Of a stretch of 45,359 bases of DNA, positions 14,328-19,620 are shown piece after piece; positions within the stretch are counted from its first letter, which is position 1; every line of letters starts with the position of its first letter. A program made the translations under genes and the position numbers. A model generated the notes under the pieces. That model saw only the letters and a list, made by a program, of their open reading frames with translations, searched no databases and was not told where the DNA came from. Source of the DNA: Alphaproteobacteria bacterium. GTDB lineage: Bacteria; Pseudomonadota; Alphaproteobacteria; CAAHEQ01; UBA3637. The DNA lies in the NCBI GenBank assembly GCA_017466695.1, contig JAFTTR010000029.1:1-45359 (forward strand), in the 5' to 3' direction.

Positions 14328-16253
14328 TTAATCTTCGTATTCGATACTAGGATACCTACCCTCAATTTTGAAATCTTTGATAGCTTGTGCTAAAGATTTA
14401 ACTTCTTGAGTTTGGGACCCTAAGCGACGAATTGTGACGGTTTCTTCTGCTTCTTCTTTTTTACCTACAACGAGAATAACTGGGATTTTTTTCAAAGAAT
14501 GTTCTCTGATTTTGTAGCCCACTTTTTCGCTACGTAAATCTGTTTCAGCACGAAGACCTGCTACATTGAGTTTGTGTGCAACTTTTTTAGCATATTCATC
14601 TTGATCGTTTGTAACTGGCATAACCATCACTTGAACAGGAGCCAACCAGAATGGGAGATGGCCAGCGCAAATTTCAAGAAAAACACCTGCAAAACGTTCC
14701 AAAGAACCAAAAAGAGCTCTGTGCAACATAATTGGACGATGTTTTTCCCCATCTTCACCAATGTAGGAAACATCAAAACGTTCTGGTAAATTCAAGTCAG
14801 CTTGCAACGTTCCTAATTGCCATTCACGACCCAATGCGTCACGCATTTTAAAGTCTAATTTTGGACCATAGAATGCACCATCACCTGGGTTGATTGTATA
14901 GGTATAACCCATATCTGTTAAAGCTTCAGCTAATGAATTTTCAAGCATATCCCAAACCTCATCAGACCCAATTCGTTCAGCTGGTCTTGTTGAAAGTTTA
15001 ATTGACATATCACTCAATCCAAAATCAGCATAAATACTCAACATTAAACGAACAACTTTTTGTAATTCTTCTTTCAATTGCTCTGGAGTACAGAAAATAT
15101 GCGCATCATCTTGCGTAAAGGCACGTACACGCATTAACCCATGTAATGCACCAGAAGCTTCATTACGATGAACACGTCCAAATTCACCAATATATTGAGG
15201 CAAATCACGATAGCTTGTAATCCCTTGTTTAAAAATGAGCATACCACCAGGGCAGTTCATTGGTTTTAAAGCAAAGGCTTTACCTTCAATTTCCGTTGTA
15301 TACATATTTTCATGATACCAATCCCAGTGACCAGATGTTTCCCAAAGAACTCTGTTCATTAATTGTGGCGTATTCACTTCAACATAGCCAACAGCTTTTT
15401 GACGTTTGCGCATATAATCAATCAACGTTTGGAAGAATGTCCACCCTCTTGGATGCCAGAAAACATCCCCTGGAGCATATTCTTCAAAATGGAACAAGTC
15501 CATTTCTTTTCCCAACTTTCTATGATCTCTTTTTTCAGCTTCTTCAATAAGCGTGAAATAATTTTTAAGATCTTTTTCGTTGAAAAAGGCCGTACCATAG
15601 ATGCGTTGTAATGATTCACGAGACGCATCTCCACGCCAATAGGAAGCAGACACTTTCGTTAATTTAAATGCTTTCCCAACTTTACCCGTGCTGGATAAGT
15701 GTGGACCACGGCATAATTCAACATAGTCATCCTGCGTGTATAAAGAAACTTCTTGAACATCTTCTGGCATGTCATGCAAAATTTCAAGCTTATACTTTTC
15801 ACCTCGTTCTGAGAAAACTTTTTCAGCCTCAGCACGTGAAACAATCGTTTTAACAATTGGATAGTCAGCATCAATGATTTTTTGCATTTCTTTTTCAATT
15901 GCTGGCAAATCAGCTTCTTTAACAACAATACCATAAAAGTCATAATAAAAGCCATTTTCAATTGCAGGGCCAATTGTGACTTGAGCGTCTTTGTACAAAC
16001 GTGTTACAGCATGAGCTAAAACGTGCGCTGTTGTGTGACGCAAAACTTCAAGAGCTTCTTCATTTTTCGTTGTAATAATAGAAATCTCAGAATTGGTTGT
16101 GATAGGTGTTGTTGTATCAGTCAATTCTCCATTCAAACGAACGGCAACAGCATTTTTTGCTAAGCCCTCACTGATTTTTTTTGCAACATCTAACCCATTC
16201 ACACCTGAGTCAACCATCATTTTTGACCCATCTGGTAATTTAATTTCTATCAT
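14328..16253 (-). CDS. thrS: Threonyl-tRNA synthetase
   Basis: This class II synthetase charges tRNA-Thr. It has 641 residues, the full bacterial length, with an N-terminal TGS domain (IKLPDGSKMMVDSGVNG), the editing domain with HTTAHVLAHA, the catalytic core with motif 2 (RVHRNEASGALHGLMRVR), the zinc ligand in LKPMNCPGG, motif 3 (ISYRDL...LHRALFGSLERF region) and a C-terminal anticodon-binding domain (LAPVQVMVMPV). The ATG at 16253 is preceded by AAAAGGA. A consensus-perfect promoter and an inverted repeat precede the gene, and a strong terminator follows. No infC or rpmI lies downstream, unlike in many bacteria. Confidence 0.97.
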   Translation of the reverse strand: MIEIKLPDGSKMMVDSGVNGLDVAKKISEGLAKNAVAVRLNGELTDTTTPITTNSEISIITTKNEEALEVLRHTTAHVLAHAVTRLYKDAQVTIGPAIENGFYYDFYGIVVKEADLPAIEKEMQKIIDADYPIVKTIVSRAEAEKVFSERGEKYKLEILHDMPEDVQEVSLYTQDDYVELCRGPHLSSTGKVGKAFKLTKVSASYWRGDASRESLQRIYGTAFFNEKDLKNYFTLIEEAEKRDHRKLGKEMDLFHFEEYAPGDVFWHPRGWTFFQTLIDYMRKRQKAVGYVEVNTPQLMNRVLWETSGHWDWYHENMYTTEIEGKAFALKPMNCPGGMLIFKQGITSYRDLPQYIGEFGRVHRNEASGALHGLMRVRAFTQDDAHIFCTPEQLKEELQKVVRLMLSIYADFGLSDMSIKLSTRPAERIGSDEVWDMLENSLAEALTDMGYTYTINPGDGAFYGPKLDFKMRDALGREWQLGTLQADLNLPERFDVSYIGEDGEKHRPIMLHRALFGSLERFAGVFLEICAGHLPFWLAPVQVMVMPVTNDQDEYAKKVAHKLNVAGLRAETDLRSEKVGYKIREHSLKKIPVILVVGKKEEAEETVTIRRLGSQTQEVKSLAQAIKDFKIEGRYPSIEYED

Positions 16254-16278
16254 TTTAAATCCTTTTCATATAGTTAAA

Positions 16279-16329
16279 CAATCTTGCCTAACAAAAAAAG
16301 CAACACCTCTTTATCATTAGGCAAGATTG
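16279..16329 (-). promoter_or_regulatory. 13-base inverted repeat at the thrS start site and leader
   Basis: CAATCTTGCCTAA (16279-16291) and TTAGGCAAGATTG (16317-16329) are perfectly complementary, separated by 25 bases. The promoter-proximal arm overlaps the expected transcription start (about 16324), so the transcript can form at least an 8-base-pair hairpin. The loop includes GAGGTGTTGC. It may act as a DNA operator or as an RNA operator for ThrRS self-control; both are inference. Confidence 0.5.
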
Positions 16330-16330
16330 A

Positions 16331-16359
16331 ATTATACGAATTTTTATTTAAAATGTCAA
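16331..16359 (-). promoter_or_regulatory. Consensus promoter of thrS
   Basis: On the minus strand a perfect TTGACA (16354-16359), 17-base spacer and perfect TATAAT (16331-16336). It is the only exact consensus pair at ideal spacing that I found in the window. Confidence 0.75.
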
Positions 16360-16397: not shown

Positions 16398-17246
16398 TTA
16401 TCTTTGATATTCATCTTTTGAAAATCTAAGCGCAACCAAATGAGGATACCACCTTCTTGAAGCAACTTTTTTTGCTTTTCTAGCGCCTAATTCAGCTTTT
16501 TCTTTTCTTGTAAGAGGGTGCCTTGTTTTACCCTCTCGTCTATCATTCCAATATTTTCGAATCTGCATTCCTTTTCGACGATATTCTGTATTTTTAGCTC
16601 GAATTTTACGCTCAATAACATCAATAATTTGCTCGCTTTTTTCTCGCTCTTCTTCATCATCACAAAAAAGAATATCCCTTTTTAATTGCTCAGCAAAACG
16701 CATTGAGGCAACATAATCAGTTGAAAATTCGTTTGGACGTTTATATACAGGCATTTGACCTGTTCTCAAATCTTCTTCCATATCCAAAACTTCTTGCTGA
16801 GTGAAAAAAAGATGCGCATCACTTGCAAGCAACACCTCTTGTTTAATTGGCAATGAAATATAAGATTTTTTATGTGTTCCATCCAACTTTACATCACGAT
16901 AAATCGGCTCTAACAAATAAGAGTGAAGCCATTTATGAAGTTTACGCTCAATCACACATAAATTGGATTCTTCATTCTTTCCACCTAAACCTAATGGCAC
17001 ATAATGGTGCACATTAAATTTTTTTGGCAATATCCCTGTTTTGATTGCATGAATAATTTCTCGTCTTTTTAAAATACCATTTAAAAGACCTTTTTTTGCA
17101 ATCTTTTTAACAAATTCATTTGCAACTTCTTGACGTTCTTTAATCGTAATAATACGTGGCGTTTGAGAAAGTAAATAAATACTTTTTTTCTCCCCCTCAC
17201 CCACTTGATAGATTTTTTTATCTTCTGTTTCAATCTTATTATACAT
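16398..17246 (-). CDS. HNH-motif protein A (paralogue of its upstream neighbour)
   Basis: This 282-residue protein is a likely nuclease of the HNH/beta-beta-alpha-metal type. The motif is HHYVPLGLGGKNEESNLC with His80-His81, Asn95, His104 and His108, the same HHxxP...GG...N...H...H spacing used by colicin-type DNases and many HNH endonucleases. A long Lys/Arg/Glu-rich C-terminal part follows (RKYWNDRREGKTRHPLTRKEK, and RKAKKVASRRWYPH), which could bind nucleic acid. It lies 6 bases after a shorter paralogue and is surely co-transcribed with it. No signal peptide, immunity-like gene or phage gene is next to it. The substrate is unknown. Confidence 0.8.
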   Translation of the reverse strand: MYNKIETEDKKIYQVGEGEKKSIYLLSQTPRIITIKERQEVANEFVKKIAKKGLLNGILKRREIIHAIKTGILPKKFNVHHYVPLGLGGKNEESNLCVIERKLHKWLHSYLLEPIYRDVKLDGTHKKSYISLPIKQEVLLASDAHLFFTQQEVLDMEEDLRTGQMPVYKRPNEFSTDYVASMRFAEQLKRDILFCDDEEEREKSEQIIDVIERKIRAKNTEYRRKGMQIRKYWNDRREGKTRHPLTRKEKAELGARKAKKVASRRWYPHLVALRFSKDEYQR

Positions 17247-17252
17247 GAGAAA

Positions 17253-17864
17253 TTAACAACCTCCTCTATTTAAAGACCGAGATTGGCAAAAAGCATCCCT
17301 AAATCCCATGTCAGAGTTACAATTCGTCCGACGGTGCCGTGTCACAAAATTTCGTGTCGATTCTTCAAATTTTCTAAGTTCAGAATATAAAAAGAAGTCT
17401 TCCCTATCATCCTTAACAATCACACGTTTAAATTCTGGCAAAATCAGAACACCTTCATCATTCACTTCTAATCGATCCAATACAGGTTGATAAATCAAAC
17501 GATGCATTAACATATGTGTTTCAGCATCAACGACACACAAATTGTCAATATCATTTGAACCACCTAATTTTAAAGGAACAATATGATGTACTTGCATACC
17601 TTCTGGTAAACACCCTTTCTTTTTTGCCAAACGGACAGCATTATTACTCATTAACCCATCGAAAAAGCCAGCTTCTGCCATTTGTTGCACAACCTTGATT
17701 GGCTTTCCATTTTCATAGCCATGCATTTCATACATATACCGAGCATCAATCAATTCAGGTCTTGGCAATTTTTTAATCTTGTGCGCCGTTGTTTTTCTAT
17801 CTTTATACAACACACTTGAAAGCATAAAAGTTGGCTTATCAGAACCAATAATTTCTTGTATCAT
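17253..17864 (-). CDS. HNH-motif protein B (shorter paralogue)
   Basis: This 203-residue protein carries the same HNH core as the following gene: HHIVPLKLGGSNDIDNLC with His93-His94, Asn108, His117 and His121. The spacing between His, Asn and His is identical, and the flanking residues (CLPEGMQVHH against ILPKKFNVHH) show recent common ancestry. The C terminus is short and Cys-containing (NRGGC). It is the first gene of the pair, with a promoter embedded in the prfC terminator. The N-terminal half (about 1-60) is unlike protein A's and may give a different partner or target. Function is unassigned. Confidence 0.8.
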   Translation of the reverse strand: MIQEIIGSDKPTFMLSSVLYKDRKTTAHKIKKLPRPELIDARYMYEMHGYENGKPIKVVQQMAEAGFFDGLMSNNAVRLAKKKGCLPEGMQVHHIVPLKLGGSNDIDNLCVVDAETHMLMHRLIYQPVLDRLEVNDEGVLILPEFKRVIVKDDREDFFLYSELRKFEESTRNFVTRHRRTNCNSDMGFRDAFCQSRSLNRGGC

Positions 17865-17876
17865 AACCCATCCATT

Positions 17877-17926
17877 AAAAAAATAAAAAGTGCATGTATT
17901 TTATCATAAAACACATGCACTTTCAA
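17877..17926 (-). promoter_or_regulatory. prfC terminator hairpin containing the promoter of the HNH pair
   Basis: AAAGTGCATGT (17887-17897) and ACATGCACTTT (17913-17923) form an 11-base-pair stem; on the minus strand the run TTTTTATTTTTTT follows (17877-17889), making it the prfC terminator. In the same strand TTGAAA (17921-17926), a 17-base spacer and TAAAAT (17898-17903) form a promoter for the HNH pair inside the hairpin. Confidence 0.6.
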
Positions 17927-17958
17927 GATTTTTTTCAAAAATATAGACAAGAGTGTCA

Positions 17959-19545
17959 TTATTCTTTAATTTTCAACAACTCAATATCTGGAAAATCATC
18001 TATCGCCTTATTCAAATGCCATGCATTGCGCGCTAAAAAGACGGGTGCTTCATCATGATCCGTCGCCATCGTACTTGCATTTAATGTTTTAAAACGTTCA
18101 ACTTTTGATACCTCACCCCTCACCCATCTAGCTGTATAATAACTGGTTGGTTCAAAAATAACAGGCACATCAAATTCTGTTCGAATTCTATCAGCCAAAA
18201 CTTCAAATTGCAAAACACCAACAACACCTACAATCCATTCAAACCCGTGAACAGGTTTAAAAATACTAGCACCCCCTTCTTCAGCAATTTGATCCAACGC
18301 TTTTGCTAAATGTTTTGCCTTTAAAGGGTCTTGTGGACGCACTTTTTTCAAAAGTTCTGGCGCAAAAGAAGGAATTCCTTTAAATTGCAAAACTTCTCCT
18401 TCTGAAAAAGAATCTCCAATGCGCATTCCCCCATGATTTGGAATTCCAATAATATCGCCAGCAAAAGCCTCTTCAGCTACCTCTCTATCTTGTGCTAAAA
18501 ACATAACCGGATTATGCAAAATCATTTGTTTTTGACTTCTTAAATGCAACAATTTCATCCCACGCTTAAAATGGCCAGAGCAAACACGCATAAAGGCAAT
18601 TCTATCCCTGTGTTTTGGATCCATATTCGCTTGAATTTTAAACACAAAACCTGAAACTTTTTCTTCATCAGGCAAAACTTGTCTCGAAGCTGTTTCTTGC
18701 GCTTTAGGAGATGGCGCAAATTTCACAAGCGCATCTAACAACTCCTTCACCCCAAAATTGTTAACAGCAGAACCAAAAAAGACCGGCGTCATCGACCCTT
18801 CTAAATAAGCCTCTTTGTCAAATTCAGGACAAAGCCCTTTTGCCATTTCAACTTCATCTTTTAATGTTTCAATGACATCTTCAGACAATACTTTAGAAAG
18901 TTTTTCATCATCAAGACCTTTAATTTCAGCCGCTTCTTGTGGCAAAACAGATTTGTTCACGCCCTTTTCAAACAAACAAAGTCTATCATTTAACAAATCA
19001 TAACACCCTTTAAAATCACGCCCCATGCCAATTGGCCAAGAAGCAGGTGATACATCCAATGCCAAAGTCTGTTCAATTTCTTCTAACAACTTAAAAGGCT
19101 CATGTCCATCTCGGTCAAGCTTGTTGATAAATGTAATAATTGGAATATCACGCAAACGACACACTTCAAACAATTTTTTTGTTTGAGCCTCAATCCCTTT
19201 TGCACTATCAATCACCATCACAGCCGAATCAACAGCTGTTAAAACACGATACGTATCTTCAGAAAAGTCTTCATGCCCTGGGGTGTCTAATAAGTTAAAT
19301 GAACAGCCTCCATATTCAAAACTCATCACGGAAGAGGCAACCGAAATACCCCTTTCTTGTTCCACCTTCATCCAGTCAGAATGAGCCCGTCTATTTTCAC
19401 CACGAGCTTTCACAGCCCCTGCTTGATTAATCGCACCCCCAAAAAGCAAAAGTTTTTCAGTCAAAGTTGTTTTACCTGCGTCAGGGTGAGAAATAATCGC
19501 AAATGTGCGTCTTTTAGATGTAATTTCAGTCAAATTATTAGGCAT
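17959..19545 (-). CDS. prfC: Peptide chain release factor 3
   Basis: RF3 is the GTPase that recycles RF1 and RF2 after termination. The frame opens at 19602, but the ATG at 19545 (MPNNLTEITSKRRTF) has AAGAGA upstream and yields 528 residues, matching the usual 527-529. Walker A is SHPDAGKTTLTEK; ERGISVASSVM, LLDTPGHEDFSEDT and FINKLDRDG are the other G motifs. The C-terminal part has the RF3-specific GVVGVLQFEVLADR segment. It has its own promoter (19592-19620) and a terminator at 17877-17923. Confidence 0.96.
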   Translation of the reverse strand: MPNNLTEITSKRRTFAIISHPDAGKTTLTEKLLLFGGAINQAGAVKARGENRRAHSDWMKVEQERGISVASSVMSFEYGGCSFNLLDTPGHEDFSEDTYRVLTAVDSAVMVIDSAKGIEAQTKKLFEVCRLRDIPIITFINKLDRDGHEPFKLLEEIEQTLALDVSPASWPIGMGRDFKGCYDLLNDRLCLFEKGVNKSVLPQEAAEIKGLDDEKLSKVLSEDVIETLKDEVEMAKGLCPEFDKEAYLEGSMTPVFFGSAVNNFGVKELLDALVKFAPSPKAQETASRQVLPDEEKVSGFVFKIQANMDPKHRDRIAFMRVCSGHFKRGMKLLHLRSQKQMILHNPVMFLAQDREVAEEAFAGDIIGIPNHGGMRIGDSFSEGEVLQFKGIPSFAPELLKKVRPQDPLKAKHLAKALDQIAEEGGASIFKPVHGFEWIVGVVGVLQFEVLADRIRTEFDVPVIFEPTSYYTARWVRGEVSKVERFKTLNASTMATDHDEAPVFLARNAWHLNKAIDDFPDIELLKIKE

Positions 19546-19591
19546 AAATTTCTCTTTCATAAATATTTCATATTCAAAAATAAGTGGCACA

Positions 19592-19620
19592 ATTATAGTC
19601 AAAAAAAGTTATTTTTTCAA
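19592..19620 (-). promoter_or_regulatory. Promoter of prfC
   Basis: On the minus strand TTGAAA (19615-19620), 17-base spacer, perfect TATAAT (19592-19597), 46 bases before the ATG. Confidence 0.65.

What the first reader, a model, noticed from the sequence alone, without database searches (positions are those of the whole stretch)
16398..17864. Tandem pair of paralogous HNH proteins with own promoter
Two adjacent genes encode proteins with identical HHxxP...GG...N...H...H spacing but different N- and C-terminal parts. No mobile-element genes, methylase or immunity gene is adjacent. They could be a two-component nuclease, a defence module or homing-type remnants.
Basis: partly seen in the sequence, partly recalled or inferred. 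Interest (0 to 1): 0.55.

Follow-up and report, generated by a model that had tools for sequence, protein, structure and literature searches.

The report
Two HNH nuclease genes beside thrS
A gut alphaproteobacterium carries two neighbouring genes for related HNH-type nucleases, part of a family in its lineage whose inactive cousin sits beside a type IV secretion gene, so the pair may belong to a secretion-linked nuclease toolkit; nothing has been tested at the bench.

Summary
Window 17253-17864 (-, 203 aa, P2) and 16398-17246 (-, 282 aa, P1) are tandem paralogues with identically spaced, intact HNH residues and a promoter-like site kept in three genomes. They are not a lone pair. The host family (f1) has an HNH family with three recurrent sites: (i) directly 3' of recG, intact and more conserved than RecG; (ii) just 5' of thrS (21 of 41 genomes), fast-evolving, as singles, tandems or fused two-unit proteins, 31 of 43 scored units intact; (iii) between a T4SS coupling protein and a SUKH gene, where the catalytic base is lost in 27 of 27 scored units while the metal-site residues are kept. 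Site iii also occurs in eight other alphaproteobacterial families. The window pair belongs to site ii. Fused relatives are two copies of one fold unit, often one dead and one live, so a two-unit nuclease is plausible, but unit number and catalytic state vary. I rank a type IV secretion-linked nuclease effector first (0.36), ahead of an intracellular DNA/RNA-processing nuclease (0.28). Homing and phage-defence readings are poorly supported. The evidence is genomic context and predicted structure only.

The parts
17253..17864 (-). P2, 203 aa, first gene of the pair; HNH unit with intact H93 H94 N108 H117 H121 (motif at 17588-17502)
   Evidence: orthologues in G002, G005
16398..17246 (-). P1, 282 aa, second gene; HNH unit with intact H80 H81 N95 H104 H108 (motif at 17009-16923) plus a long basic helical C-terminal tail
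   Evidence: orthologues in G002, G005
17898..17926 (-). promoter-like site TTGAAA-17-TAAAAT before P2; similar site at nearly the same distance in G002 and G005
   Evidence: pattern match only
17877..17933 (-). inverted repeat (28-nt arms) overlapping that promoter; part of it (17924-17886) also scores as an intrinsic terminator for the upstream gene
17260..17265 (-). AGGAGG inside the last codons of P2, 13 nt before the P1 start codon (longer than the usual spacing): possible ribosome-binding site, so P1 may be coupled to P2
   Evidence: sequence; function inferred
16331..16359 (-). perfect consensus promoter TTGACA-17-TATAAT between P1 and thrS; sites of 10-12 of 12 in 20 of the 22 genomes shown
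16279..16329 (-). hairpin at the 5' end of the presumed thrS leader
14328..16253 (-). thrS, downstream neighbour to which the HNH genes stay linked
   Evidence: named by eye
17959..19602 (-). prfC-like gene, upstream neighbour (named by eye)

Best explanation
P2 and P1 are the thrS-site members of a lineage-specific HNH nuclease family that is tied to the bacterium's type IV secretion system (T4SS). Each protein is one fold unit (beta-hairpin, two helices, strand-strand-helix metal nuclease core, strand) with a complete catalytic set and its own tail; the two probably form one operon. Most likely they are metal-dependent nucleases that act as, or alongside, T4SS-delivered effectors (toxin-type nucleases), possibly as a two-unit assembly like the fused proteins of sister genera. 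Shown: the pair, its intact motifs, its retention under purifying selection, and the link of paralogues to coupling-protein and SUKH genes. Inferred: nuclease activity, pairing, secretion, target.
For: A paralogue of the same family lies between a T4SS coupling protein and a SUKH (YrhA-type) gene in this genome. In f1 the SUKH gene is found in 42 of 43 genomes at E <= 1e-4, 25 of 43 over the curated cut-off, with an HNH match within about 1 kb of it in 37 of those 42 (my tally; the coupling protein in f1 was checked by model only in G000 and seen by eye at locus edges). VirB4 is in 42 of 43. Of 13 non-f1 genomes with a coupling-protein match, 8 have the trio coupling protein-HNH-SUKH. In G010, G021 and G028 the thrS-site HNH gene is the next gene, or next but one small ORF, to virB3-like and virB4 genes. 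Imm-SUKH is a known partner of HNH-fold toxins (PMC3482391, passages); HNH-HNH-SUKH_5 occurs in L070. The fold resembles, among others, the Rhs2-CT toxin (Z 5.8-6.0, fused relative) and colicin E9 DNase (Z 4.4, P1). The C-terminal 20 residues of thrS-site proteins are rich in Arg but not Lys: Arg 0.146 vs 0.068 in the rest, 21 clusters, p 2.6e-5, a feature reported for A. tumefaciens VirB/D4 substrates (PMC10025392, passage).
Against: No SUKH gene in the window or at any thrS or recG locus of L001-L103, although an unsecreted nuclease would meet its own DNA. The Arg-rich tail is as strong in recG-type copies (0.160), which look like housekeeping proteins, so it may just bind nucleic acid. The T4SS link is direct only for the inactive paralogue; in this genome VirB4 is on another contig. 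Co-occurrence over 80 of the 99 non-f1 genomes: coupling protein in 7 of 9 with the HNH family and 6 of 71 without (Fisher p 1.7e-5), but two of the nine (G089, G111) are positive only through the coupling-protein-linked copy itself; without that circularity it is 5 of 7 and 8 of 73 (p 9e-4), and neither test corrects for phylogeny. 5 of the 13 coupling-protein genomes (G052, G056, G061, G074, G110) show no HNH or SUKH beside it. Z-scores are modest; for P1 the top rows match only its helical tail, and the best row for the fused protein is a teneurin. 12 of 43 scored thrS-site units have lost catalytic residues.
Confidence: 0.36

Rival explanations
1. Intracellular nucleic-acid-processing nucleases. 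The ancestral role is the recG-linked copy (a nuclease working with the RecG helicase or in repair); the thrS-site copies are duplicated, faster-evolving relatives with a related intracellular job, one unit often serving as a non-catalytic scaffold.
For: 22 of 22 distinct HNH genes directly 3' of recG keep the HH, H and N residues, scored without using the motif to pick them; the recG-type gene is next to recG in 21 of 29 genomes examined; dN/dS 0.03-0.04 and 91-95% identity where RecG itself has 71-83% (three genomes); no SUKH at recG or thrS loci of L001-L103; the dead N-terminal unit of fused proteins is still under purifying selection (dN/dS 0.12-0.23).
Against: thrS-site copies were not found at thrS in 20 of 41 genomes (one of them unscored), vary from one to four units, and lose both active sites in G010 and G021, unlike a core repair nuclease. 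RuvC is present in 42 of 43 genomes, so no resolvase gap needs filling.
Confidence: 0.28
2. T4SS adaptors or chaperones rather than effectors: the HNH fold is used as a protein-binding scaffold and catalysis is incidental or lost.
For: Coupling-protein-linked copies lost the second His in 27 of 27 scored units while keeping the other H, N, H, H, and most f1 members share a C-terminal tail of the DRSVYAGFS...MPGR kind; dead units are common at the thrS site.
Against: P1 and P2 keep the full catalytic set, as do their orthologues in G002 and G005.
Confidence: 0.12
3. Free-standing homing endonucleases or their remnants fixed beside conserved genes.
For: Phage genes nearest to P2 are mostly annotated as homing endonucleases; PHROG 655 and 10088; sites beside conserved genes; mixture of live and dead copies.
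Against: Copies cluster by site in the tree (10 label changes for 6 groups, shuffled mean 36.2; labels partly rest on sequence, and near-copies favour clustering); dN/dS well below 1; no plasmid match for P2 and no match for P1 among GenBank phages; dead two-unit ORFs stay open.
Confidence: 0.08
4. Anti-phage or anti-plasmid defence nuclease pair.
For: Fast divergence, tandem duplication.
Against: 0 PADLOC families for either protein; no methylase, sensor or mobile gene recognised by eye nearby; same core-gene position in many relatives.
Confidence: 0.07

Closest known systems
HNH nuclease superfamily (Pfam PF01844; Gme HNH nicking endonuclease, colicin E9 DNase, Cas8f-HNH domain)
   Same: HHxxP...GG...N...H...H core and strand-strand-helix fold
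   Different: N-terminal beta-hairpin plus two helices, tandem or fused double units, site-bound lineage-specific family
HNH-fold polymorphic toxins with Imm-SUKH immunity (PMC3482391, passages)
   Same: HNH fold; SUKH genes beside several paralogues
   Different: No long toxin carrier (the proteins are 203 and 282 aa); window pair has no adjacent SUKH; coupling-protein-linked copy lacks the catalytic base
VirB/D4 type IV secretion effectors with Arg-rich C-termini (PMC10025392, passage)
   Same: Arg-rich C-termini; VirB4 in 42 of 43 genomes of the family
   Different: Translocation untested; the tail is also present in recG-type copies
Phage HNH homing endonucleases (PHROG 655, 10088)
   Same: HNH core similarity to P2
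   Different: Bound to fixed chromosomal sites and under purifying selection

Membership tests
HNH nuclease superfamily | HH, N, H, H/N residues with conserved spacing | tested here: met
   P1 and P2 both complete
HNH nuclease superfamily | beta-beta-alpha metal fold | tested here: met
   P1 model, mean pLDDT 84.9; HNH chains among the matches at Z 4.3-5.2, modest values
HNH nuclease superfamily | metal-dependent nucleic acid cleavage | not testable with these tools
   needs an assay
SUKH-immunised HNH toxins | adjacent SUKH immunity gene | tested here: not met
   SUKH model finds no gene in the window; met for paralogues
SUKH-immunised HNH toxins | toxicity relieved by the immunity protein | not testable with these tools
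   needs an assay
T4SS effectors | T4SS present in the genome | tested here: met
   VirB4 in G000 and 42 of 43 f1 genomes; coupling protein in G000; other components not searched
T4SS effectors | C-terminal translocation signal | tested here: inconclusive
   Arg-rich tails as a group, but also in recG-type copies; window P2 itself is only average in net charge
T4SS effectors | translocation | not testable with these tools
   needs a reporter assay
Homing endonucleases | mobile, spread independently of the host tree | tested here: inconclusive
   copies cluster by site and are under purifying selection, but no gene-tree/species-tree test was run
Known defence systems | match to a defence family model | tested here: not met
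   0 PADLOC families at E <= 1 for either protein

The most novel reading that the evidence does not exclude
The family forms a self-contained secretion module: an inactive copy of the nuclease (base His lost, metal site kept) sits with a SUKH protein at the T4SS coupling protein and works as a receptor that recognises the live HNH paralogues, such as the window pair, by their shared fold and holds them inactive until they are exported. A toxin and its immunity protein would thus have been turned into the substrate-loading part of a secretion system.
Probability: 0.15. Interest if true: 0.85.

Novelty: new variant of a known kind. Interest (0 to 1): 0.5.

Why it matters
If right, the pair are exported nucleases of a little-studied group of gut alphaproteobacteria, and their inactive cousin marks a coupling-protein complex built from a toxin fold and its immunity fold. 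Text searches of the held open-access library listed no paper that I could recognise, from titles and abstract starts, as describing this; I read passages of two papers only, and most subscription journals are not held.

Tried and rejected
Replacement Holliday-junction resolvase (recG-linked HNH standing in for RuvC): rejected, RuvC in 42 of 43 f1 genomes.

HNH genes as promoter donors to thrS: a promoter-like site of at least 10 of 12 lies in the gap before thrS in 20 of 22 genomes shown (no shuffle control; the G035 start position there was my estimate), so co-transcription is not needed. Two Rfam hits in the region were far below gathering scores.

DotN/IcmJ as an HNH relative in a coupling complex: a recalled idea; the searches gave nothing for it and I drop it. 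Foldseek gave no PDB match at E 0.001 or better and VIA-align Z stayed below 8; that is no evidence of a new fold.

Limits and dropped rows. The tree has 135 columns for 82 rows and 34 open forks; P2 with the dead N-units of the g3 fused proteins and one G039 unit has SH-aLRT 91, P1 with the single genes of G003, G004, G006, G007, G009 has 82, neither starred. recG-type rows were thinned to every third there, and rows labelled thrS include L086 (G003, not at thrS) and L094 (G024, contig end). In one search recG-type was picked by a motif that contains HH, so that count is circular; one search repeats it without the motif. One search leaves out rows with five or more motif gaps (number not printed), and its thrS class holds near-copies (G026/G032, G004/G006/G007/G009). 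L068_15 was taken out of the coupling-protein class (28 rows, 27 counted) because it is not at that site. L090 and the uppS copies were left out. At thrS, G018 had no ORF called, G003 has a divergent thrS (43%), and G024 and G042 had no match at the threshold; in G020 two ORFs, and in G010, G021, G026 and G032 one small ORF, stand between HNH and thrS in the greedy calls. Gene names such as prfC, rpe, phoB, gatCAB, queA, pheA, sodB, virB3 are by eye.

Full report
The pair is real. P2 (17253-17864, -) and P1 (16398-17246, -) are adjacent same-strand ORFs with a 6-nt gap. The spacing HH-P-GG-N-H-H is identical. Pfam HNH passes its cut-off for P2 but not for P1. The AlphaFold2 model of P1 (mean pLDDT 84.9) has the HNH core preceded by a beta-hairpin and two helices and followed by a helical tail. 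A promoter-like site precedes P2 and recurs in G002 and G005, although such sites are no commoner in the region than in shuffles.

The genome holds four copies of the family: P2, P1, one directly after recG, and one after a VirD4-type coupling protein. In 385 genomes of the class the recG-type profile finds the family in 18 at E 1e-6.

thrS site. Among 41 f1 genomes with a thrS match (40 of 42 relatives plus the window's own), 21 have HNH family genes within the nearest three called ORFs upstream of thrS and 20 do not or could not be scored. Upstream of the HNH genes the neighbours differ: prfC, a lipoprotein gene, a response regulator, a transporter, a DNA polymerase gene, or virB3-like/virB4 (by eye except VirB4), while the HNH-thrS link stays. 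Unit number varies: one gene (G004, G006, G007, G009, G012, G014), two (G000, G002, G005, G020), three or four (G026, G032, G035), fused double (G022, G036, G038, G040, and in G010, G021, G028, G033). A thrS promoter-like site lies in the gap in 20 of 22 genomes shown.

The fused 373-aa protein of G040 is two copies of the P1-like unit by predicted secondary structure (mean pLDDT 85.7): N unit without the catalytic HH, C unit intact. In the tree P2 falls with such N units (SH-aLRT 91) and P1 with the single genes of its own genus (82). Both units have lost the motif in G010 and G021. Over the thrS class 31 of 43 scored units are intact. P1 and P2 orthologues show dN/dS 0.10-0.36; the dead N unit 0.12-0.23.

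recG site. The recG-type gene is directly 3' of recG in 21 of 29 genomes examined. All 22 distinct genes found directly 3' of recG, picked without the motif, keep HH, H and N. In three genomes dN/dS is 0.03-0.04 and the gene is more conserved than RecG. RuvC is present in 42 of 43 genomes.

T4SS site. In G000 the coupling protein matches Pfam T4SS-DNA_transf; the gene after the HNH copy matches the SUKH-fold YrhA family, above cut-off in L075 and just below in L074. SUKH is found in 42 of 43 f1 genomes (25 over the cut-off) and VirB4 in 42 of 43. The trio recurs in G080, G063, G115, G092, G044, G111, G089 and G073, but coupling-protein matches in G110, G052, G056, G061 and G074 have no HNH or SUKH beside them. 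In 27 of 27 scored units the second His is Leu, Ile, Val or Gln while the first His, Asn and last two His are kept; G073's copy is more degenerate. The C-termini of these 27 are not Arg-rich (0.054), unlike thrS-site (0.146, 21 clusters), recG-type (0.160, 29) and other-family copies (0.123, 11).

Co-occurrence. Over 80 of the 99 non-f1 genomes the coupling protein is found in 7 of 9 with the HNH family and 6 of 71 without (p 1.7e-5). Two positives rest on the coupling-protein-linked copy itself; moving them gives 5 of 7 and 8 of 73 (p 9e-4). Phylogeny is not corrected for. I lowered the leading reading from 0.38 to 0.36 and raised the intracellular one from 0.27 to 0.28 for this.

Interpretation. 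Context ties this HNH family to a T4SS and to SUKH proteins, which partner HNH toxins in known systems (PMC3482391, passages only). I therefore favour secretion-linked nucleases for the window pair, with an intracellular nuclease role second. The Arg-rich tails do not decide between them, because recG-type copies share them. Homing and defence are least supported.

Noticed in passing
window 16253-16359: thrS has a perfect sigma-70 consensus promoter and a strong 5' leader hairpin; most relatives shown keep a promoter-like site and many a hairpin of different sequence, which could be a thrS control element.
   Followed up: partly
L074 6366-9693 (G000:C15) and L186-L193: Coupling protein - HNH without the catalytic base - SUKH/YrhA gene trio in f1 and eight other alphaproteobacterial families.
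   Followed up: yes
L073 9973-12521 (G000:C14): recG followed at 2 nt by a 152-aa HNH gene more conserved than recG itself.
   Followed up: partly
L151, L152, L154-L159: A second SUKH gene beside a queA-like gene (by eye) in eight genomes of f1 genera g5, g7, g8, g9, with no HNH match in these loci; in L070 two HNH genes and a SUKH gene lie before a queA-like gene.
   Followed up: no
L068, L069 (G115): Several HNH family copies, some near pheA-like and queA-like genes (by eye), in family f74.
   Followed up: no
L224 539-991 and L225 8710-9162 (G001, G008): The recG-type HNH gene lies away from recG, a few kb from gatCAB-like and virB3-like/virB4 genes.
   Followed up: no
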